Positions 1-45,973 of a DNA stretch of 64,000 bases are shown here, one piece after another (positions within the stretch are counted from its first letter, which is position 1; each line of letters begins with the position of its first letter). The DNA is taken from the NCBI RefSeq assembly GCF_014696385.1, contig NZ_JACJQB010000017.1, positions 1 to 64,000 of the forward strand. Reading direction: 5' to 3'. The translations under genes were made by a program, and so were the position numbers. This DNA is from Pseudanabaena mucicola FACHB-723. Its GTDB lineage: Bacteria > Cyanobacteriota > Cyanobacteriia > Pseudanabaenales > Pseudanabaenaceae. Below the pieces are notes generated by a model. The model ran no database searches. It had not been told where the DNA came from and saw only the letters and a program-made list of their open reading frames with translations.

Positions 1-25
1 AAGTGGCTCAATTAGTCTCACAGTA

Positions 26-75
26 ATTAGTTCGGATATGGTGATTCTTAGAATCTTCCCATTAGTTCGGATATG
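26..75. repeat. 15-bp direct repeat upstream of lysA
   Basis: The 15-mer ATTAGTTCGGATATG occurs at 26-40 and again at 61-75, 35 bp apart, about 100 bp before the chosen lysA start. It could be a duplicated regulatory site or a chance or slippage duplication; nothing in the sequence decides between these. Confidence 0.5.
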
Positions 76-178
76 TGTAAATAATTCTGCATGGCTACTT
101 ACAAAGCATATATGGCGCTTTGCACCTTATTTTTTTATAATAGCTTTAGAAAGCTTTGCAAAATTTTATTGGTACTTA

Positions 179-1597
179 ATGACAACTGTTTTACCGAGTC
201 TTCGTGAAGATGCGATCGCAACCAGTGCAATAGGCAATGTTGAATCTAGCCTAGATAAACTATCTCCTAATCAACAACTTCTGCCGTTAACTGCCGTAGT
301 TAATTCCCATGATCACCTCGAAATTGGTGGTTGTGATGTCGTTGAATTAGTACAGCAATATGGTTCTCCGCTTTATATTTTGGATGAAGTCAGTCTGAGA
401 ACTGGTTGTCAACAATATCGTGATGCTTTTACAAAGCATTATCAAGGCAAAGCACAGGTCTTGTATGCTTCCAAAGCTTGGAGTTGCCTTGCAGTTTGCG
501 CTATTGTTGGCGCAGAAGGATTGGGCATTGATGTCGTTTCCGCAGGTGAAATTTTAACTGCTCTTAGATCTGGCGTTTCACCGAGCTTGATTTATTTCCA
601 TGGCAACAATAAATCCGTAGATGAGCTGATCTATGCCCTAGAGTCTAACTGCACGATCGTAGTAGACAACTGGCATGAGTTAAAAAATCTGGCGCGTCTT
701 GCTGAAGAACAATCCATCGAAGCCAGCTTCGCAGCACCAAGGATCATGTTGCGCTTGACCCCTGGTATTGAATGTCACACCCATGAATATATTCAAACGG
801 GGCATATTGATAGCAAATTTGGCTTTGATCCCAATGAAATCGAAACGGTATTCGCCTTTGTTGCTGATTCTAAACTCAATTGCATTGGCATTCACGCCCA
901 TATAGGCTCCCAAATTTTTGAACTGCAACCACATCAAGATATTGGTGGTGTAATGGTTGAGTGGTTCAAGTTGGCGGGAGATAAATATGGCTTAAAGTTC
1001 ACTGAGCTAAATATTGGTGGTGGGTTAGGAATTCGCTATGTGGAATCCGATGATCCACCTAGCATTGAAGACTGGGTGAAGACTGTATGTGCAGGTGTCA
1101 CTGATGCTTTTAATCATGCAGGTTTAGCTTTACCCAAATTACTCTGTGAACCTGGACGCTCATTAGTGGGGGCAACTTGTGTCACTGCTTACACGATTGG
1201 TGGTAGTAAAACCGTGCCTGACATTCGCACCTACATCACCGTTGATGGTGGTATGTCAGACAATCCTCGCCCAATCACCTATCAATCCAAGTATCGCGCT
1301 GTGGTTGCTAATCATATGAGTGCTGCCTTGACTCAAACTGTGACGATCGCAGGTAAGCATTGTGAATCAGGCGATATTTTAATTAAAGATATCCAAATGC
1401 CTGAAACTCAGGCTGGTGATACACTTGTTGTCTTCGGCACAGGAGCTTACAACTACAGCATGGCATCCAATTACAATCGTTTGCCAAAGCCTGCGGCAGT
1501 TGTTGTCAAGGGTGGTGAGTCCAGCTTGATCATCAAACGGGAAACTCGTGAAGATCTATTACGTCAAGACTGTTTGCCAGAAAGACTGCGTCAGTAG
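179..1597 (+). CDS. lysA: Diaminopimelate decarboxylase LysA
   Basis: PLP-dependent fold-III decarboxylase that converts meso-diaminopimelate to L-lysine in the cytoplasm. The protein is 472 residues from the ATG at 179. The frame is open upstream to 38, but those 47 residues are hydrophobic and unlike the family, so the internal ATG is preferred. The PLP lysine lies in VLYASKA (K99), followed by the glycine-rich NIGGGLGIRY loop, the CEPGRS phosphate-binding segment and the C-terminal GAYNYSMASNYN motif. It is followed by cdaA and uppS on the same strand, a neighbourhood common in cyanobacteria. A 15-bp hairpin after the stop suggests that at least part of the transcription ends before cdaA. 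Confidence 0.96.
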   Translation: MTTVLPSLREDAIATSAIGNVESSLDKLSPNQQLLPLTAVVNSHDHLEIGGCDVVELVQQYGSPLYILDEVSLRTGCQQYRDAFTKHYQGKAQVLYASKAWSCLAVCAIVGAEGLGIDVVSAGEILTALRSGVSPSLIYFHGNNKSVDELIYALESNCTIVVDNWHELKNLARLAEEQSIEASFAAPRIMLRLTPGIECHTHEYIQTGHIDSKFGFDPNEIETVFAFVADSKLNCIGIHAHIGSQIFELQPHQDIGGVMVEWFKLAGDKYGLKFTELNIGGGLGIRYVESDDPPSIEDWVKTVCAGVTDAFNHAGLALPKLLCEPGRSLVGATCVTAYTIGGSKTVPDIRTYITVDGGMSDNPRPITYQSKYRAVVANHMSAALTQTVTIAGKHCESGDILIKDIQMPETQAGDTLVVFGTGAYNYSMASNYNRLPKPAAVVVKGGESSLIIKRETREDLLRQDCLPERLRQ

Positions 1598-15040: not shown

Positions 15041-15567
15041 GTTTTTGCAATATAGCTGCCGCCAATCGCTTTTGGGATTTTGAATTATCCTAGTGCATGT
15101 GACTACAGCTATATATCAAGTAAATAAAGAACAATGAAAATAGTCTGATATTCCTAAAAAGGAAAGGATTTATTGTAGTAAGGATGGGCGGCGCTTTGCG
15201 CCGCCCATCCTTACTTATTTAGCACTACCAATAGTCTCAATCATCGCCCTTTATTTACTTGATGGTGTTTAAGCTCACACAGTAATTTTCCATATTTCGC
15301 TAGTCTATAAGTATCTAAAAACCTCTGATGCGAGCGCCACAGGTTTTAGGATTTTATATTTAACCGAGCTATTTATAGCGGTTTTTAGTTTAGTAAGACA
15401 CACATGGTTTTATCTAAGCTAGCTGAACAAAGGGCTTAAGCCACCTGTCTATAACTCACCTGTATGAGAATAGCTATATCAATAGAAATGTAAATTAGTT
15501 ACTTTTCATTTGGAAAATAGCTGAGAATTAGTTAAACACAATAAATTAAGACGGTATCTTGATCTGT
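15041..15567. other. Long intergenic region with hairpin and diverged dispersed repeat
   Basis: No gene is supported in these 527 bp. They hold a perfect 18-bp hairpin (15177-15194 and 15198-15215, loop TTT, core GGGCGGCGC). They also hold a diverged copy of the dispersed palindromic repeat (15303-15365) seen at 4153-4250, with an imperfect AAAACCT/AGGTTTT stem and the same ATTTTATATTTAA tail. The last 200 bp before ppk are A/T-rich and probably carry its promoter, but no clear -35/-10 pair stands out. Confidence 0.6.
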
Positions 15568-17817
15568 ATGCCTAGACCTAAAAAAGATGTAAGCCAAATA
15601 AGTGTAGAAGTTAACCCAGCAGAATCTGACATAGTTGCGATTAAAACTGAGTCGGCAGAGGTCTCAGTATCTAAACTAGAAAAAGCGGTCAAAGGTACAA
15701 ATTCAAACACAAATTTAAGCAAGTTAGAATTAATTGAGCCAGAATTTGAAACATCCCTAGATCAGTCAATTCCCTTGTTTAATCGTGAGCTAAGTTGGAT
15801 TGCTTTTAATAAGAGGGTTTTAAGTGAGGGTATTGACTCTCGCACATCCTTACTAGAACGGGCTAAGTTTTTTGCGATTTTTAGCACTAACCTTGATGAG
15901 TTTTTTATGGTTAGAGTGGCAAGGGTCAAGAAAAAATTGGCTGAACAAATTGATGTTGTCTCCGACGACGGTCTCAGCCCTGAACAACAACTAGCGTTAA
16001 TTCGTGAAGCACTAGTCCCGTTGATCACGATGCAGCATGAATTTTTTGAGAATACCCTGCGTCCTGAGTTATATAAACATGGTGTAAAGCTGCTGGACTA
16101 TAAGGATATTGATAAAAAACATCAACGCTATCTCAAGAATTATTTCCAAGACAAGCTATTTCCTGTACTGACCCCCTTAGCTGTCGATCCTGCTCACCCA
16201 TTTCCATATATTTCTAATCTCAGTCTCAATTTAGTGGTGATCGTTTGCGATCGCGAAACCAAGGAAAAAAACTTTGCGCGGGTCAAAGTCCCCAATGTAT
16301 TGCCCAGATTTGTCAAAATCCCTGAAACCGATGACCATACCTTTGTCCCCCTAGAGCAGGTCATTGCCCATAACCTCGAAGCCTTATTTCCGGGTATGGA
16401 AATAGTCAGTTACTATCCATTTCGGATTACCCGCGATGCTCAGTTGGACATCGAAGAAGAAGAAGCTGACGATCTCATTTCCGCACTACAAGAGGAACTA
16501 CGCAAGCAAAAGTTTGGATCTGTGGTGCGGATGGAAATTGCTAAGGATGTTCCCCCAGAAATTCGGAAGGAATTGATTGAACAACTGGGAATTACCGAAG
16601 CGGATGTCTATGATATTCCGGGGCTAATTGGCTTAGGTGGGTTGATGTCGATCGCATTTTTACCGATGGAAGAGTATCAAGACAAACCTTGGAAATCAGT
16701 CACCCATCCACGCCTCAAGGAAGGCTATGAAGAGGATAAAAGTTTTTTTGAAATCATCCAAGAAGGTGATTTTCTTGTCCATCATCCCTATCAATCCTTT
16801 ACGACGACGGTACAGCGTTTTATCGAAGAAGCTGCCAATGATCCTGATGTCTTAGCGATTAAGCAAACCCTGTATCGCACCTCTGGCGACTCACCGATCG
16901 TTCATGCCTTGGTACGTGCTGCTGAAAATGGTAAGCAAGTAGCGGTGTTGGTCGAACTGAAGGCAAGATTTGATGAAGCAAATAATATTCTTTGGGCAAA
17001 GAAGCTAGAAAATGCAGGTGTGCATGTAGTTTATGGATTGAAAAATCTCAAAACTCACACCAAAACTGCTTTAGTTGTGCGTCAAGAAGGTGATCGCTTA
17101 GTTCGCTATGTCCATATCGGTACTGGCAATTACAATCCTAAAACAGCAAGATTTTATAGTGATCTAGGTATTTTTAGCTGTAATGATGATTTAGGCGCTG
17201 ATCTTACCGATTTATTCAACTATTTGACTGGTTATTCGCGTCAGCGTAACTATCGCAAATTGCTCGTTGCTCCTGTGAATATGCGTGAGAAATTCTTGAA
17301 GCTAATTCATCGCGAAATTGAGCATCAAAGGCAGGGATATCCTTCCTATATCATTGCCAAGATGAATTCTTTGGTTGATCCTGAAATTATTAATGCCCTC
17401 TATGAAGCTTCACAGGTTGGTGTAAATATTGATTTAATTATTCGCGGTATTTGCTGCATTCGCCCAAAAGTAAAGGGACTAAGCGATCGCATTCGCGTCA
17501 TTAGCGTAATTGGACGATTCCTAGAACATTCACGTATCTTTTACTTTAGCAATGCTGGCGAAGAGCAGGTGTATATCGGTAGTGCGGACTGGATGCCTCG
17601 AAACCTTGATGCAAGGGTTGAGGTAATTACACCCGTTGAAAGTCCAATTTTGGTAAAGGAACTCAAACAGATTCTGGAAATCATTCTTGCGGATAATCGT
17701 CAAGCTTGGGATCTTAAGGCAGATGGAACATATGTTCAGCGAATTCCACAACAGGGAGAACCAGAAATGAGTTCGCAAAAACATTTCATGTCTCAAGGCA
17801 GACCCGAATTCGCATAA
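15568..17817 (+). CDS. ppk: Polyphosphate kinase 1
   Basis: Reversibly polymerises the gamma-phosphate of ATP into polyphosphate. The 749-residue chain starts at the ATG at 15568 (a TTG nine bases upstream is the alternative). It has a 70-residue disordered N-terminal extension, then the conserved N domain starting at LFNRELSWIAFNKRVL. The head domain and two phospholipase D-like C domains follow, with the motifs KTHTKTALVVR and YVHIGTGNYNPKTA containing the phosphohistidine region. The last codons and stop lie inside a 50-bp palindrome shared with bioB. Confidence 0.95.
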   Translation: MPRPKKDVSQISVEVNPAESDIVAIKTESAEVSVSKLEKAVKGTNSNTNLSKLELIEPEFETSLDQSIPLFNRELSWIAFNKRVLSEGIDSRTSLLERAKFFAIFSTNLDEFFMVRVARVKKKLAEQIDVVSDDGLSPEQQLALIREALVPLITMQHEFFENTLRPELYKHGVKLLDYKDIDKKHQRYLKNYFQDKLFPVLTPLAVDPAHPFPYISNLSLNLVVIVCDRETKEKNFARVKVPNVLPRFVKIPETDDHTFVPLEQVIAHNLEALFPGMEIVSYYPFRITRDAQLDIEEEEADDLISALQEELRKQKFGSVVRMEIAKDVPPEIRKELIEQLGITEADVYDIPGLIGLGGLMSIAFLPMEEYQDKPWKSVTHPRLKEGYEEDKSFFEIIQEGDFLVHHPYQSFTTTVQRFIEEAANDPDVLAIKQTLYRTSGDSPIVHALVRAAENGKQVAVLVELKARFDEANNILWAKKLENAGVHVVYGLKNLKTHTKTALVVRQEGDRLVRYVHIGTGNYNPKTARFYSDLGIFSCNDDLGADLTDLFNYLTGYSRQRNYRKLLVAPVNMREKFLKLIHREIEHQRQGYPSYIIAKMNSLVDPEIINALYEASQVGVNIDLIIRGICCIRPKVKGLSDRIRVISVIGRFLEHSRIFYFSNAGEEQVYIGSADWMPRNLDARVEVITPVESPILVKELKQILEIILADNRQAWDLKADGTYVQRIPQQGEPEMSSQKHFMSQGRPEFA

Positions 17818-17855
17818 AAAAAGCTCCCCTAGGGGAGCTTTTTTTATGCGAATTC
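17806..17855. terminator. 50-bp perfect palindrome spanning both stop codons of ppk and bioB
   Basis: Positions 17806-17830 are the exact reverse complement of 17831-17855. The centre is a GC-rich CCCCTAGGGG with A7/T7 tracts outside it, a classic bidirectional terminator. The outermost 12 bp on each side are coding: both convergent genes finish with GAA TTC GCA TAA, so both proteins end in Glu-Phe-Ala. Confidence 0.93.
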
Positions 17856-18782
17856 CTTGGGTTTCACACCAAGTTTTTCAAACATAGCCACATCATCTTG
17901 CCAATCGGGATTGGCAGTTGTGAGTAATTTCTCGCTGGAAAAGATGGAGTTTGCACCAGCAAGGAAGCATAGGGCTTGATCGGATACACTGAGGCGATCG
18001 CGACCTGCGGATAGTCTCACCACCGCTTTTGGCATCAATATCCTCGCGGTTGCAACCATTCGCACTAACACTAGCGGATCAATTTCGGGAATATCGCCAA
18101 AGGGTGTACCTTCTACGGCAGAGAGGGCGTTAATGGGTACGGATTCTGGCTGTGGGTTGAGATTGGCGAGAGTGTGCAGAAGATCAATGCGATCGCAATC
18201 AGTTTCACCCATACCAACGATGCCACCACAGCAAACTTGAATACCTGCATCGGCAACATGCTGAATTGTTTCGAGACGCTCGCGATAGGTGCGCGTCGTA
18301 ATGATTTCGGGATAGAAACTTTCAGAAGTGTCGAGATTGTGGTTGTAAGCGGTTAAACCTGCTTGAGCTAAACGTTGTGCTTGATCAGGACGCAACATCC
18401 CCATCGTCACACAGGCTTCCATTCCCATGCCTGCAACTGCTTCCACCATTTGTAATACCCGCTCAAACTCTTCACCATCAGGAGCATTGCGCCATGCTGC
18501 ACCCATGCAAAATCTAGTCGCGCCATGCTGTTTGGCTTCTTGGGCTTGACTGATTACTTCATCAAGGGGCAATAGAGGATAATTTTCTACCCCCGTTGGA
18601 TAGCGAGCGCTCTGAGGACAATACTTGCAATCTTCAGGACACCGCCCTGATTTAATATTCGATAAAGTACACATCTGCACGGCATCGGTTTGATGGTACT
18701 GGCGATGGATAGTCTGAGCCTCAAAGATCAGAGACAGCAGAGGACGATGGTAAATTTCGGTGACTAGTTCAAGGGAAATCAA
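17844..18782 (-). CDS. bioB: Biotin synthase BioB
   Basis: Radical-SAM enzyme that inserts sulfur into dethiobiotin. The 4Fe-4S radical-SAM motif is SGRCPEDCKYCPQS (about 46-59, CxxxCxxC). Later conserved cysteines and the asparagine-rich YNHNLDTS segment for the 2Fe-2S cluster and substrate are present. The 312 residues are full length. The only plausible start near the family N-terminus is TTG at 18782, with no strong ribosome-binding site, which may mean low translation. It depends on Fe-S assembly, as supplied by the suf genes about 6 kb away. Confidence 0.95.
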   Translation of the reverse strand: MISLELVTEIYHRPLLSLIFEAQTIHRQYHQTDAVQMCTLSNIKSGRCPEDCKYCPQSARYPTGVENYPLLPLDEVISQAQEAKQHGATRFCMGAAWRNAPDGEEFERVLQMVEAVAGMGMEACVTMGMLRPDQAQRLAQAGLTAYNHNLDTSESFYPEIITTRTYRERLETIQHVADAGIQVCCGGIVGMGETDCDRIDLLHTLANLNPQPESVPINALSAVEGTPFGDIPEIDPLVLVRMVATARILMPKAVVRLSAGRDRLSVSDQALCFLAGANSIFSSEKLLTTANPDWQDDVAMFEKLGVKPKEFA

Positions 18783-18960: not shown

Positions 18961-21900
18961 ATGATTCCTGCCCAAGAACCAACCAATGAACTAGAAAGGA
19001 TCGCCGCTTTATATGAGTGCAGCATCCTAGATACCGAATCAGAGCAGGGCTTTGACGATATCACACAACTAGCTGCGGATATTTGTAAAACACCGATCGC
19101 ATTGGTCAGTTTGATCGACAAGGATCGACAATGGTTTAAATCTAGGGTGGGTCTGGGTCAGACAGAAACCTCTAGACAGGTATCATTCTGCGCCCATGCC
19201 ATTCTTCAAGATGACATTTTTATCGTTCATGACACTTTAACCGATCCAAGATTTGCGACAAATCCGCTAACTCTAGAACCACCCCATATCCGATTTTATG
19301 CAGGCGTGCCGATCAAAACTAGCGCAGGATATCCATTAGGTACACTCTGCATAATTGATCATCAACCTAGAGACTTGAATCAAGAGCAAATTAACGCACT
19401 TAAGGCTCTTGCCCGTCAGGTTGCTTATATTATTGATTCCCGTCGCAGCCTCTTAGCAATCAACCATTCAGTCCCCATCAGCGATCTTCAGAGCAATGTC
19501 CCTAAGGGAACTTTTGTGAAGAAAATTGCGTTATGGAGCATTACAGCGGCGGCGATGGTGACTGGTATGGGCATAACTGCCTTAATGAATATTGGCTATG
19601 TCGAGAAATCAAATAATGCAGTTATTCAGCAAAATGAGACTCTAAGTAAAATCAATCAGCCCCTCAATCATCTGCGCGATCTAAAAGTAGAGACTACTAA
19701 CTATATTTTGTCAGGTAGTCCTGAAAGTTTATCAAAGCAGAAAATTTTGATTAAAAACTTAGAACTAGAATTAAAAGAACTAAAGGCAATATCTCAAGAT
19801 TCGGGTTTAAAAAAATACACTCAATTACTAGAAAATCCTAAGTATAAGGCTCGGTTTCAATCAACAGTCTCTTTGTTGGCTGAGCAAATTGAGAAACAGT
19901 TAAATGAATCTCAGCAGATATCTATGCTGTATCAATCCGCAGGAACTGAGGCTATTCGCAAAAAAATATTTGATCTCAATAGTAGCTCTAATGAATTCAA
20001 CATTGCTGTTACACAGTTAGAAGATCTAGTTGAGATCGAGAGCGCTGATTTAACAAAGCTACAGAAAGAAATTCAAGATTTGACTAGTAATTCTATACGC
20101 ATTTCTATATTTACGTTAATTGCAACCTTGGGGGTAATCGGTCTATTATTTTACCTCGTACAACGGGAAGTCACTGCCCGTCGGCACCTAGCCAATAGAC
20201 TAAAGCAGGAACGTGATTTTACAATTACGATTTTAGATAATGTCAGCGCACTGGCTTTTGTTTTAGATGCCAATGGACATATCATCAGATTTAATCGTGA
20301 ATGCGAGAAAGTAACGGGCTATCACTACGAAGAGATTAGAAATCAATCCTTTTGTAAAATTCTTTTATTGCCTGAAGATGTTGATTCGGTTAGCAGTAGT
20401 CTTAGCAAGCCAGCACATAATAAAAAGCTTCTCAATTCCCTTGAAAATTATTGGGTCACAAAAAGTGGTGAGCATCGCTTGATTTCTTGGTCAACGACAG
20501 TATTGGTCAATCAGAATAATGAAACTCAATTTATTATTGGTACTGGCGTAGACATTAGCGATCGCAAACGGGTGGAAGAAGAAATCCGCCTTCAAAATTG
20601 GCGCGCCCTTGTTTCATCGCAAATCACCTTAAAGATTAGACAATCTCTTGACGTTGGGGAAATTTTGAGTACCACAGTCTCAGAGGTGCGAAAATTTCTC
20701 AGAGCTGATCGAGTCATTGTTTACAGCTTTAATGGCGAATGGGAAGGCAATGTAGAGGTGGAGTCGGTCATAGAGCCTTGGACTCCATCATTAGGTACAG
20801 AGGTAAAAGATTTATGCTTCCGTCATGGTCTATGGAGTGACTATCGCCAAGGTCGCAAGGTGGTCAATTCCGATGTTCCTAATTCCGATACGCCAGATTG
20901 CTACAAAAAATTGATGGCCCAGTTCCAAGTCCAAGCAAATATTGTTGTTCCTATTTTAGAGAGTGATCGTCTTTGGGGACTCCTGATTGCTCACCAATGC
21001 AGTGAGCCAAGACAATGGCGCAGTTTTGAAGTGGATTTTCTGACAGAAACAGCTAGCCAAGTGGGGATTGCCCTCTACCAAGCAACCCTACTAGAGCAAG
21101 AAACTTTACGCCGTAAGCAGCTTGCCCAGCAAAATATTGAATTAGAAGAAGCACGCCATCAAGCCGAAATTGCTACTCGCATGAAGAGCTCTTTCCTTGC
21201 CACGATGAGCCATGAAATTCGGACTCCTATGAATGCTGTGTTGGGGATGACGGGATTGTTGGCGGATACCGAGCTGTCTCAGTTGCAGCGTGACTTTGTC
21301 GAAACAGTGCGAATCAGTGGGGAGAATCTACTGACATTAATTAATGAAATTCTGGACTTTTCTAAGCTTGAAGCAAATGAAATGGAACTAGAGGAGATTA
21401 ATTTTGATTTAAATACCTGTGTCGAAGAAGTAACCGATTTGTTAGCGATGTTGGCACAGTCAAAGGGCATAGAACTCGCTTCTTTAATCCATCAGAATGT
21501 GCCTATTTATCTGTGTGGTGATGTATCACGATTACGGCAAATATTAACTAATCTCGTTAGTAATGCAATCAAATTTACAGCCCAAGGCGAAGTTATAGTC
21601 AAAGTTTCGCTATTAGGTGAAACAGCATCGAATGCCAATATTGAATTTCGGGTTATTGACACAGGTATTGGGATATCTCCAGAATCACAGAAGAAACTTT
21701 TTCAGCCCTTTACTCAAGTTGATGCTTCTACAACCCGCAAGTATGGTGGCACTGGCTTAGGCTTGGCAATTTGCAAACAAATTGTTGATTTAATGGGTGG
21801 AGAAATCGGTATTGATAGCGAAGAAGGTAAAGGTTCACAGTTTTGGTTCAAGCTCCCGTTTGTTAAGCAGTCAGAAGCAGCAATCGTGGCTCGTAAACCA

Positions 21901-23142
21901 AGGCGAGATGTTGCTCTCAAAGATATTCGGGTTTTAGTAGTTGACGATAATAAGACGAATTGTAAAATTCTCTCCTATCAGCTTACTGCTTGGCAAATGC
22001 GCGTAGATGCAGTGCAGAGCGCCGTGGAAGCAATTCCGATCATCCGTGCCGCCATTACCGCAGGCGATCCTTACCAAATTGCCATTTTAGATATGCAGAT
22101 GCCAGATCTTGATGGTGAAATGTTGGGCGCACAGATCAAGTCCGATCCCAGTCTTAAAGATACAAAGTTAATTATGCTCACCTCTTTAAATCAACGGGGT
22201 GGTGTACATCGCGTCAAAGAGATGGGCTTTGAATTCTATCTTGTCAAGCCAGTTAAGCAATCTCGTTTATTTGATGTCTTAATGGAAGTTGCTTCCTCCA
22301 ATGCTCAACTTAATACAATCATGGATATTCCTACCCAGCCTGTGCCTCAACCAAAACCTACTAGTACATCTAAGCTCAAGATATTGATAGCTGAAGATAG
22401 TCCGATTAATCAAAAAGTGGCGCTACACCAATTACGCAATTTTGGCTACGACGCTGATGTTGCAGGTAATGGACATGAAGTTTTGCAATTGCTTGAGCAT
22501 ATCCACTATGACTTGATTTTGATGGATTGCCAAATGCCAGAGATGGATGGCTATGAAGCCACTAGGGCAATTCGGAATCTTGATTCTGAGAAGAGCAAAA
22601 TTGCAATTGTGGCGATGACTGCTAATGCGATGAAAGAAGATCGCGATCGCTGTCTTGCCTGTGGTATGGATGATTATGTGAGCAAGCCCATTCGTAAAGA
22701 GGATCTTGCTCAGAAGATTGCTGAATGGGAGAAAAAAATCAATTCTAAGAATGTAAATATTGTGACTGAAGATAGTGCTTGCAGTCTTGACATCCACAAG
22801 TACGATGCTGTGCCGCTAATTGATTGGGACTATATTGATAGTCTGGTTGATGGTAATGACCATTTTAAAGAAGAGATATTTCAGACTTTTTGTGATGCGA
22901 TCGCAAAAAACATAGGGCAGTTAGAGCAGCAGATTATGGCTAATGATTGGGGCGAAATCAAAAAAACTGCCCATATGATCAAAGGTTCTTGCAGTAGTTT
23001 AGGGGTTTTATCGATTGCTGCGATCGCATCTGATATCGAGAAAATGGGACAAGGTGAAAACCAAAGTAATCTCACCTCCTTATTCTTAAAAATGCAAGAA
23101 TTCTTTGCTCAAATCCAAGACATTTACAAAAATGGATTCTAA
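18961..23142 (+). CDS. Hybrid histidine kinase with a probable DXCF-type cyanobacteriochrome GAF domain
   Basis: 1393-residue multidomain sensor. Order: GAF (1-165), transmembrane helix (189-210), extracytoplasmic helical region (about 211-378), transmembrane helix (381-400), PAS (417-533), GAF (546-710), HisKA with H751 in [10 protein letters not shown], HATPase (about 845-965), receiver 1 (D1044 in [10 protein letters not shown]), receiver 2 (D1189 in [10 protein letters not shown]) and Hpt (H1338 in [12 protein letters not shown]). All phosphorelay residues are intact. The second GAF has DLCF (C619), YRQGR and DCYKKL (C647): two cysteines 28 residues apart, as in TePixJ-type cyanobacteriochromes, so it may bind a bilin. 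The gene stands alone; no output regulator is adjacent. Confidence 0.92.
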
Positions 23143-23200
23143 GCAAAAAAACAAAGAGAGTTGCGGCGCTTCGCGCCGCAACTCTCTTTGTTTTTTTGCT
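23142..23200. terminator. 28-bp hairpin between the hybrid kinase and nfu
   Basis: Perfect 28-bp stem (23142-23169, 23173-23200; loop TTC) with core GTTGCGGCGC and A7/T7 outer tracts. It separates convergent genes and can end both. The core is shared with hairpins at 39364 and 45191, while the outer arms differ. Confidence 0.88.
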
Positions 23201-23469: not shown

Positions 23470-23518
23470 AACCGAGATATCGTACTGCCTGCGTAGCAGG
23501 CAGTACGATATCTCGGTT
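23470..23518. terminator. sufR terminator hairpin
   Basis: Perfect 23-bp stem (23470-23492, 23496-23518; loop GTA), 57 bp downstream of the sufR stop on the leftward strand. A smaller 11-bp inverted repeat (CAATGCTAATT type) lies at about 23530-23552, just before it. Confidence 0.8.
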
Positions 23519-45882: not shown

Positions 45883-45961
45883 AAATCTAAGTATTGGCTT
45901 GCAATACTTAGATTTCGAGCATAAAAAAGCCGCGCAATGCGCGGCTTTTTTATGCTCGAAA
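45883..45961. terminator. Two adjoining hairpins between rpsF and hli
   Basis: The first is a 14-bp stem (45883-45896, 45902-45915). The second is a 23-bp perfect stem (45913-45935, 45939-45961; loop AAT) with core GCCGCGC and A6/T6 tracts. They share 3 bp. The second serves as a strong bidirectional terminator for the convergent pair. Confidence 0.88.
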
Positions 45962-45973
45962 TATCAAAAAGAC

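What the first reader, a model, noticed from the sequence alone, without database searches (positions are those of the whole stretch)
17806..17855. One 50-bp palindrome encodes the same C-terminus for two convergent genes
Seen: 17806-17855 is a perfect palindrome that includes the last four codons of both ppk and bioB. Each ends GAA TTC GCA TAA, so polyphosphate kinase and biotin synthase both end in Glu-Phe-Ala. Known: intrinsic terminators can serve convergent genes, but rarely extend in perfect symmetry into both reading frames. Inferred: a mechanism that copies one arm onto the other (for example template switching in a hairpin) or insertion of a preformed palindrome may have rewritten both protein ends.
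Basis: seen in the sequence. Interest (0 to 1): 0.65.

Follow-up and report, generated by a model that had tools for sequence, protein, structure and literature searches.

The report
DNA hairpin rewrote a neighbour's tail
In this cyanobacterium a terminator-like DNA hairpin between two head-on genes spreads into both of them, and comparison with relatives suggests that the end of one gene (ppk) was copied, in mirror image, onto the end of the other (bioB), so that a DNA-copying slip rather than selection changed a protein.

Summary
In detail: 17806-17855 is a perfect 50-bp palindrome covering the last four codons (stop included) of ppk and bioB. The inference is half right. In 25 of 25 genus members with both genes, ppk ends in RPEFA, palindrome or not; bioB ends in KEFA in only 8 of 25, each with the palindrome or a split remnant. 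So only bioB's tail looks derived, with ppk as donor. In four relatives the ppk tail is mirrored into non-coding DNA, following that genome's own synonymous codons. Best explanation: a bidirectional terminator-type hairpin whose arms are extended and homogenised by replication template switching. Support: pairing runs far beyond the T-run; symmetric double changes; loops flipped between sister species and, between strains 0.6% apart, in 10 of 40 hairpins. Such hairpins abound here, but of 251 convergent pairs surveyed only ppk-bioB shares its last 12 nt. Unsettled: one origin with losses or several origins, and whether the last step was in-place conversion or a junction onto an existing mirror. 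Terminator function is untested.

The parts
17806..17855 (.). perfect 50-bp palindrome (two 25-nt arms, no loop)
17823..17838 (.). G+C core of the hairpin, GCTCCCCTAGGGGAGC; most relatives with this hairpin have a 3-nt loop that is AAA in some and TTT in others
17839..17845 (+). T-run (7 T) after the core on the + strand: expected 3' end of ppk transcripts
   Evidence: function inferred
17816..17822 (-). A-run (7 A), read as T-run on the - strand: expected 3' end of bioB transcripts; it overlaps the ppk stop codon
   Evidence: function inferred
17806..17817 (+). last four codons of ppk, GAA TTC GCA TAA (donor arm); the EFA tail is found in 25 of 25 genus members
17844..17855 (-). last four codons of bioB, GAA TTC GCA TAA (recipient arm); EFA in 8 of 25 genus members
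15559..17817 (+). ppk, polyphosphate kinase 1 (last Pfam domain ends at residue 740 of 752)
17844..18782 (-). bioB, biotin synthase (last Pfam domain ends at residue 306 of 312)

Best explanation
A bidirectional intrinsic-terminator-type hairpin sits between two convergent genes. During replication the polymerase repeatedly switches template inside such hairpins, copying one arm from the other. This keeps the arms complementary, flips the loop, and lengthens the arms outward past the functional T-run. At ppk the outward growth ran over the stop codon into the gene, so a mirror copy of the ppk tail (EFA-stop) lies on the far side of the hairpin. Where bioB ends directly there, its last codons are that mirror, which changed its tail from a KELV-like end to KEFA. 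Shown: the palindrome, the genus-wide ppk tail, the restricted bioB tail, mirror copies in non-coding DNA, symmetric changes, flipped loops. Inferred: replication template switching as the agent, the ppk-to-bioB direction in this very lineage, and terminator function.
For: (1) ppk ends SQGRPEFA in 25 of 25 genus genomes, but EFA in 0 of the 8 ppk loci fetched from other cyanobacterial families. (2) bioB ends KEFA in 8 of 25; 6 of these have both gene ends in one palindrome (G013 with an N-gap in the core), and 2 (G003, G006) have it split by an inserted hairpin or a ~130-bp insert. (3) G022, G005, G012 and G038 carry the ppk-tail mirror in non-coding DNA. A mirror of the last 12 ppk nt with <=1 mismatch close after ppk occurs in 11 of 25 (in 7 of them it is bioB's own end, in 4 non-coding); <=2 mismatches in 7 of 5000 control stretches. 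(4) The mirror tracks synonymous ppk codons (TTC/GAA versus TTT/AAA; GAA versus GAG): on 9 hairpins 7 of 26 pairs change on both sides, 98.7% of cells pair, 0 of 500 shuffles as high on four of five measures, slid controls without any such pair. (5) In 205 hairpins pairing continues past the last T-run by 2.81 bp on average, expected 0.36; >=8 bp in 23, expected 0.005; RNA ending in the T-run lacks the outer 3' arm, so termination cannot select for it (inference). (6) G017 carries a symmetric change inside both T-runs. (7) Loops flip between sister species at this hairpin (G018/G008, G005/G012) and after rpoB and secA; between G039 and G040 at 0.62% divergence 10 of 40 hairpins have inverted loops, with 2 symmetric doubles and 5 single-arm changes.
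Against: KEFA needs 4-6 changes by Fitch, or one gain with 4-5 losses, and several deeper nodes are weak (30-81%). G019 (KELV, no palindrome, other ORFs between ppk and bioB) is nested with 97-99% support among palindrome genomes and needs recombination, loss or retained ancestry. One of five covariation measures (further pair types) is not above shuffles (156 of 500). No abutting KELV genome with the same hairpin was found, so the conversion itself was not caught. bioB tails outside the genus were not obtained. Genes for ExoVII (xseA) and SbcD are present in 26 of 26 genomes, so no simple repair defect explains the abundance. No transcript data; no raw reads.
Confidence: 0.7

Rival explanations
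1. Selection for a longer RNA stem (termination or 3'-end protection) extended the hairpin by ordinary stepwise compensatory mutations; bioB's tail tolerated the change.
For: Hairpins lie between many convergent pairs (115 of 217 with gap -20..300 hold an arm >=12 repeat); covariation is what selection on a stem would also give; the C-terminal tails lie outside the Pfam domains.
Against: The outer 10 bp lie beyond the T-run and would be absent from a terminated transcript. Unpaired intermediates are rare (98.7% of cells paired). Loop inversions are not explained. Symmetric changes occur inside the T-runs. In E. coli, ribosomes repress terminators a few bp after a stop codon (PMC4824070, abstract and one section read), so growth over the stop codon is not an obvious gain.
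Confidence: 0.12
2. Variant of the best explanation for the last step only: bioB was not converted in place; a deletion or insertion joined its end to an already existing mirror of the ppk tail in the spacer, so bioB captured its last codons and stop from it.
For: Non-coding mirrors exist without adjacent bioB (G022, G005, G012, G038). Spacer content turns over a lot (a Uma2-type gene in G022, similar ORFs in G005 and G019, extra hairpins in G003 and G021). The palindrome ends at the same GAATTC in all 6 two-gene cases, as one junction would give.
Against: An in-frame join at the same codon several times is unlikely unless it happened once and then spread; KELV codons of G002, G022 and G019 differ from a KEFA version by only 2-4 nt, so in-place correction of a quasi-palindrome would be easy.
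Confidence: 0.35
3. A preformed palindrome or mobile hairpin element was inserted between the genes and brought both tails.
For: Dispersed hairpin repeats are common in the genus (16 distinct places in G022 match one hairpin of another locus).
Against: The 50-bp sequence occurs once in the genome; three other places match only 28-38 bp. The outer arms equal the genus-wide ppk tail and follow its codons from genome to genome.
Confidence: 0.03
4. Coincidence: both proteins independently conserve an EFA tail.
For: ppk's EFA is conserved across the genus.
Against: bioB's EFA is found only with the palindrome or its remnant (8 of 25), and not where the genes are apart; the identity reaches the codon level.
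Confidence: 0.02
5. Assembly artefact at a hairpin.
Against: The two-gene palindrome is seen in 4 further genomes without gaps, with lineage-specific cores; flipped loops occur also at arms of 11-18 bp, below usual assembly k-mers (recalled, no call).
Confidence: 0.02

Closest known systems
Quasipalindrome correction / short-range template switching in E. coli and yeast (PMC7202029 passages read; PMC8604942 abstract and one section read)
   Same: One arm of an inverted repeat is rewritten from the other; loop (spacer) inversion; amino-acid changes with repeated, parallel occurrence in yeast genes.
   Different: There the arms lie in one gene or in a reporter. Here donor and recipient arms are the ends of two different convergent genes, and the hairpin is terminator-like.
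Template switching creating and maintaining RNA hairpins (PMC8794818, abstract and passages read)
   Same: Perfect stems created or repaired by a single copying event, with loop inversions as footprint, some of them in bacterial rRNA.
   Different: Shown for microRNA and rRNA genes; the word terminator does not occur in that text.
Hairpin inversions in plastid genomes (PMC9653739, passages read)
   Same: Small loops between palindromic arms are said to flip commonly in plastids, the cyanobacterial descendants.
   Different: No copying of a protein end from gene to gene in the passages read.
Intrinsic terminators / inverted repeats after stop codons (PMC6060812 E. coli, PMC13155455 many genomes, PMC13289151 cyanobacteria; abstract and passages, or passages only, read)
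   Same: Stem plus T-run after genes. PMC13155455 reports more substitutions in spacers and fewer in arms of inverted repeats near terminators, which loop inversion could partly explain (my inference).
   Different: In E. coli the repeats are frequent after the stop codon and scarce before it; here the arms run 9 nt into both genes and pairing continues 10 bp past the T-run.
Coding palindromes in nematomorph mitochondria (PMC6649704, abstract read)
   Same: Perfect inverted repeats with both arms coding for protein.
   Different: Long repeats embedded within mitochondrial genes; no gene-to-gene transfer of a tail in the abstract.

Membership tests
Intrinsic (Rho-independent) terminator, bidirectional | G+C-rich stem-loop | tested here: met
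   core GCTCCCC/GGGGAGC, fold -43.9 kcal/mol, z -9.19
Intrinsic (Rho-independent) terminator, bidirectional | T-run directly after the core on both strands | tested here: met
   7 T on each strand
Intrinsic (Rho-independent) terminator, bidirectional | lies just beyond the ends of convergent genes | tested here: met
   26 nt between the stops; the core is outside both genes, the outer arms are inside
Intrinsic (Rho-independent) terminator, bidirectional | transcripts end in the T-run | not testable with these tools
   no RNA 3'-end data
Product of template switching (quasipalindrome correction) | reverse-complement copy of adjacent sequence, donor identifiable | tested here: met
   mirror of the genus-wide ppk tail with <=1 mismatch in 11 of 25 genomes: 7 times bioB's own end, 4 times non-coding
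Product of template switching (quasipalindrome correction) | symmetric changes on both arms | tested here: met
   7 of 26 pairs with change on both sides, 0 of 500 shuffles as high on four of five measures, 156 of 500 on the fifth; 2 symmetric doubles between G039 and G040
Product of template switching (quasipalindrome correction) | loop (spacer) inversion | tested here: met
   at this hairpin in sister pairs G018/G008 and G005/G012; 10 of 40 hairpins between G039 and G040. The window's own copy has no loop
Product of template switching (quasipalindrome correction) | ancestor with quasi-palindrome and descendant with perfect palindrome at this site | tested here: inconclusive
   no abutting KELV genome with the same hairpin; direction rests on tail distributions
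Product of template switching (quasipalindrome correction) | dependence on replication enzymes shown genetically | not testable with these tools
   needs experiment
Mobile palindromic element (REP/MITE type) | several near-identical copies of the whole element in the genome | tested here: not met
   one full copy; three other places match 28-38 bp at 89-96%
Mobile palindromic element (REP/MITE type) | target-site duplication at this locus | not tested
   no empty site was compared
Known structured RNA family | Rfam covariance model match | tested here: not met
   0 matches at gathering score in the whole window

The most novel reading that the evidence does not exclude
In the genus Pseudanabaena intergenic hairpins live in a permanent template-switching regime: loops flip at roughly 40 times the per-site substitution rate (10 of 40 hairpins at 0.62% divergence), arms are recopied and creep outward over stop codons, and this has rewritten protein C-termini, moving a tail from one gene to its convergent neighbour, possibly several times in parallel, without selection for the new residues.
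Probability: 0.5. Interest if true: 0.75.

Novelty: new variant of a known kind. Interest (0 to 1): 0.56.

Why it matters
Template switching in hairpins is known from reporters, yeast genes and RNA genes. Here it appears to work at terminator-like hairpins across a bacterial genus, fast enough to see between strains under 1% apart, and in one case to have given a protein the tail of an unrelated neighbour. That offers a natural system for measuring how often this copying happens, and a warning that covariation in a stem, usually read as proof of selection on RNA, can be produced by mutation alone.

Tried and rejected
Rejected: insertion of a preformed palindrome (one full copy only); coincidence of conserved tails (bioB tail distribution); known RNA family (0 Rfam matches); absence of two hairpin-related nucleases as the cause (xseA and sbcD in 26 of 26; that these restrain hairpins is recalled, and PMC7202029, which I searched for it, does not contain the word exonuclease).

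The G002/G021 pair is too diverged for a clean loop comparison (of 27 hairpins 16 unaligned, 11 changed). E. coli was used only for density: 1 and 2 repeats of arm >=12 in 50 kb each, too few to measure loop flips. The first version of the extension statistic (212 hairpins, mean 3.98) was biased by the arm >=12 filter and was redone. A row for L061 was dropped before the counts because it is the same contig as one of G039.

Literature: nine paper searches listed no report of a terminator palindrome moving a C-terminus between convergent genes, nor of loop flipping at bacterial terminators. Several lists were cut (20 of 168, 20 of 397, 20 of 37, 20 of 22 and 15 of 596 papers), and the library holds open-licence papers only, so this is not proof of absence.
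Full report
WHAT IS THERE. The window lies in a 3.96-Mb genome of 94 contigs. A bioB search of named genomes found 17 loci, 14 of them in records named Pseudanabaena (the others Phormidium tenue, an uncultured cyanobacterium and an Oscillatoriales cyanobacterium); the link between unnamed handles and names is by equal contig length, an inference. ppk (15559-17817, +) and bioB (17844-18782, -) converge with 26 nt between their stops. 17806-17855 is a perfect palindrome of two 25-nt arms without a loop. From the centre outward it has a G+C core (17823-17838), a T-run on each strand (17839-17845 on +; the A-run 17816-17822 read on -), and an outer part of 10 bp per arm (17806-17815 and 17846-17855). 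The arms reach 9 nt into each gene before its stop codon. Both genes end GAA TTC GCA TAA. Pfam and NCBIfam confirm polyphosphate kinase 1 and biotin synthase; the last Pfam domains end at residue 740 of 752 and 306 of 312, so the shared residues lie in tails outside the domains. No Rfam family matches in the window.

IS IT MORE THAN CHANCE. Yes. One first-order Markov resample each of the window and of a 260-kb contig gave 0 and 1 perfect inverted repeats of arm >=12. In 1.564 Mb of this genome there are 392, so the hairpin is one of a genome-wide class. In a first set of 1.164 Mb, 290 repeats of arm >=12 were found; 7 lay wholly inside ORFs, 30 reached at least 1 nt before a stop codon, and 4 of these did so in two convergent ORFs. 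ppk-bioB goes deepest of the four (9 nt on each side; the others 6, 4 and 2); one single-sided case goes 12 nt deep. Samples of three other cyanobacterial families had 9 in 200 kb, 9 in 100 kb and 0 in 100 kb, none reaching into an ORF end; E. coli had 1 and 2 in 50 kb each. ORFs in these counts are mechanical. Among 251 adjacent convergent ORF pairs in 1.564 Mb, 19 share the last residue, and one, ppk-bioB, shares the last three residues and the last 12 nt.

WHO COPIED WHOM. The genus holds 26 genomes in the collection, the window's own included; 25 have matches (G016, 76% complete, has none). In 25 of 25, ppk ends SQGRPEFA, whether or not a palindrome is present and also where ppk and bioB are apart (G040: about 85 kb on one contig; G020: about 9 kb; in G001, G012 and G039 they lie on different contigs). 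Of 15 genomes outside the genus, ppk loci were cut out for 8; 0 of these 8 end in EFA. bioB ends KEFA in 8 of 25 (G000, G018, G010, G008, G017, G013, G003, G006) and in KELV (7), KDLV, KELSR (3), KDLVSS, KK, KQ, KGSSIYS, KEASISSYSQVR or KELSLQP in the rest. Six of the eight have both gene ends inside one palindrome (G013 with an N-run in the core). In the other two it is split: G003 has a second hairpin after the ppk mirror, with near-repeats TTTTTATGCAAAT and TTTTTAGGCAAAT on its two sides, and G006 has about 130 bp inserted. So the ppk tail is old in the genus and the bioB tail looks derived.

THE MIRROR WITHOUT BIOB. In G022, G005, G012 and G038 the ppk tail is mirrored across the hairpin into non-coding DNA while bioB lies further off, or on another contig (G012), with another tail. 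In G022 a Uma2-type gene lies between (Pfam); G005 and G019 have ORFs of similar sequence there (by eye). A mirror of the last 12 nt of ppk with at most 1 mismatch, starting within 90 nt of the stop, occurs in 11 of 25 genomes: in 7 it is bioB's own end (G000, G018, G010, G008, G017, G013, G003), in 4 non-coding. Control stretches gave at most 2 mismatches in 7 of 5000. G003 has in addition a shorter perfect mirror next to the hairpin (7 coding nt). The mirror follows the genome's own synonymous codons: TTC faces GAA, TTT faces AAA, and in G038 GAG TTT faces AAACT. On an alignment of nine hairpins (G013 with its N-run and the split G003 and G006 left out), 7 of 26 pairs show a change on both sides and 98.7% of cells pair; 0 of 500 shuffles are as high on four measures, but 156 of 500 on the fifth (further pair types); slid controls have no pair with change on both sides (the structure comes from these sequences, so percent paired is partly built in, and the aligner put one row, G000, two columns off in the core). 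KEFA goes with a mirror of at least 7 coding nt in 7 of 8, against 4 of 17 without KEFA (Fisher p 0.007); this ignores relatedness and is partly built in, since an abutting KEFA tail is itself the mirror.

WHY A COPYING MECHANISM AND NOT SELECTION ON RNA. A transcript ending in the T-run never contains the outer 10 nt of the 3' arm, so intrinsic termination cannot select for their pairing (inference from the established termination mechanism). The excess is genome-wide: in 205 hairpins whose arm up to the end of the last T-run is at least 12, perfect pairing goes on for 2.81 bp on average against 0.36 expected; 23 go on for 8 bp or more against 0.005 expected. G017 carries a symmetric A-to-G / T-to-C change inside both T-runs, which should weaken termination both ways, yet stays perfectly paired. 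And loops flip, which stem selection does not explain: at this hairpin the loop is TTT in G018, G022 and G012 but AAA in G008, G017, G005, G006 and G038, with the sister pairs G018/G008 and G005/G012 differing (sister relations); G010 has TTG and the window's copy no loop. Two further examples: the hairpin after rpoB has gat in G008, G017 and G018 but atc in G019 and G005; the one after secA has t in G008 and a in G018, which a single substitution could also give.

A DIRECT LOOK AT RECENT CHANGE. G039 and G040 differ at 638 of 102,716 aligned sites (0.62%; blocks from 0.26 to 1.8%). Of 40 aligned perfect hairpins with arm >=12 and a loop whose inversion can be seen, 25 are identical, 10 have an inverted loop (some with further changes), 4 have arm changes only and 1 an indel; over all there are 2 symmetric double substitutions (about 0.01 expected by hand calculation) and 5 single-arm substitutions. 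Repeats of arm 7-11 inside ORFs: 0 of 35 inverted; non-coding ones: 2 of 22. An earlier pass with slightly different rules counted 43 aligned hairpins, 28 identical, 7 exact inversions, 8 other; 7 of the 50 hairpins in G039 could not be aligned.

HOW OFTEN AND BY WHICH LAST STEP. A tree of rpoB and secA, and one of four genes, put G019 (KELV, no palindrome, two ORFs over 200 aa in the spacer) inside the palindrome group with 97 and 99% support, and place KEFA genomes in several groups; several deeper nodes are weak (30-56% and 40-81%). Fitch parsimony needs 4-6 changes, a single gain needs 4-5 losses. KELV-like tails recur in deep lineages with different codons, which favours KELV as ancestral; the KEFA tail then either arose several times or spread by recombination. 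The KELV codons of G002, G022 and G019 differ from a KEFA version by 2, 3 and 4 nt (G002's bioB end differs from the mirror of its own ppk tail by 4), so in-place correction of a chance quasi-palindrome would be easy; but the existing non-coding mirrors also allow a deletion that joined bioB to a mirror. The constant outer edge (GAATTC in all six) would fit one junction, or the fact that both proteins have Glu there with Pro (ppk) or Lys (bioB) before it. I leave this open.

WHAT WAS NOT FOUND. Genes for exonuclease VII (xseA) and SbcD are present in 26 of 26 genomes, so their absence does not explain the abundance of hairpins.

COMPARISON WITH WHAT IS KNOWN. Arm homogenisation and loop inversion by template switching, with repeated occurrence and amino-acid changes, are described in yeast genes (PMC8604942: abstract and the section on spacer inversions read). 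Template switching that creates and maintains RNA hairpins, with loop inversions also in bacterial rRNA, is described for microRNA and rRNA genes (PMC8794818: abstract and passages). E. coli lacZ reporters measure quasipalindrome correction (PMC7202029: passages). Hairpin inversions are called common in plastid DNA (PMC9653739: passages). A survey of 118,019 genomes reports more substitutions in spacers and fewer in arms of inverted repeats near terminators (PMC13155455: passages). In E. coli, inverted repeats cluster after stop codons and are scarce before them (PMC6060812: abstract and passages), and ribosomes repress terminators a few bp after a stop codon (PMC4824070: abstract and one section). 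In the cyanobacterium of PMC13289151 (there called Syn) 22% of transcription units carry intrinsic-terminator signatures (passages). So the mechanism is known; new here, as far as I could find, are its setting at terminator-like hairpins of a bacterial genus, the strain-level rate, and the transfer of a protein tail between two convergent genes. Nine literature searches, several with cut lists, showed nothing that reports this.

VERDICT. Observation confirmed; interpretation partly supported (copying yes, both ends rewritten no). New variant of a known kind; interest 0.56.

Noticed in passing
window 23148-23194 and 23471-23517: Two further long hairpins close together just after the large sensor kinase gene (18961-23142); part of the same abundant class.
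   Followed up: no
window 45912-45962: 25-nt-arm hairpin whose pairing runs 11 bp past the T-run, one more than at ppk-bioB.
   Followed up: no
own genome C12:39434-39490, C78:94938-94970, C12:65697-65733 (L137, L175, L139): Three other perfect hairpins reach past the stop codons of two convergent ORFs (4, 6 and 2 nt); orthologues of the first two were located but could not be read.
   Followed up: partly
L042, L043, L036 (G022, G005, G019): A Uma2-type gene (Pfam for G022, similar ORFs in the others by eye) sits between ppk and bioB, suggesting turnover of the spacer by gene gain, loss or recombination.
   Followed up: partly
L045, L047, L036 (G011, G004, G019), ppk-bioB spacer: Hairpin units flanked by TAGCTGTCGCCA-like and GGACATAAAACC-like ends recur in these spacers and look like small mobile elements.
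   Followed up: no
G022, 16 places: One hairpin type (that of own-genome C12:39434) matches 16 distinct places in G022: a dispersed hairpin family.
   Followed up: no
L011 (G013), ppk-bioB spacer: A run of N inside the hairpin core: an assembly gap at a hairpin.
   Followed up: no
G039 versus G040, C148 block (L237, L244): This stretch is 1.8% diverged while the other blocks are 0.26-1.0%, perhaps imported by recombination.
   Followed up: no
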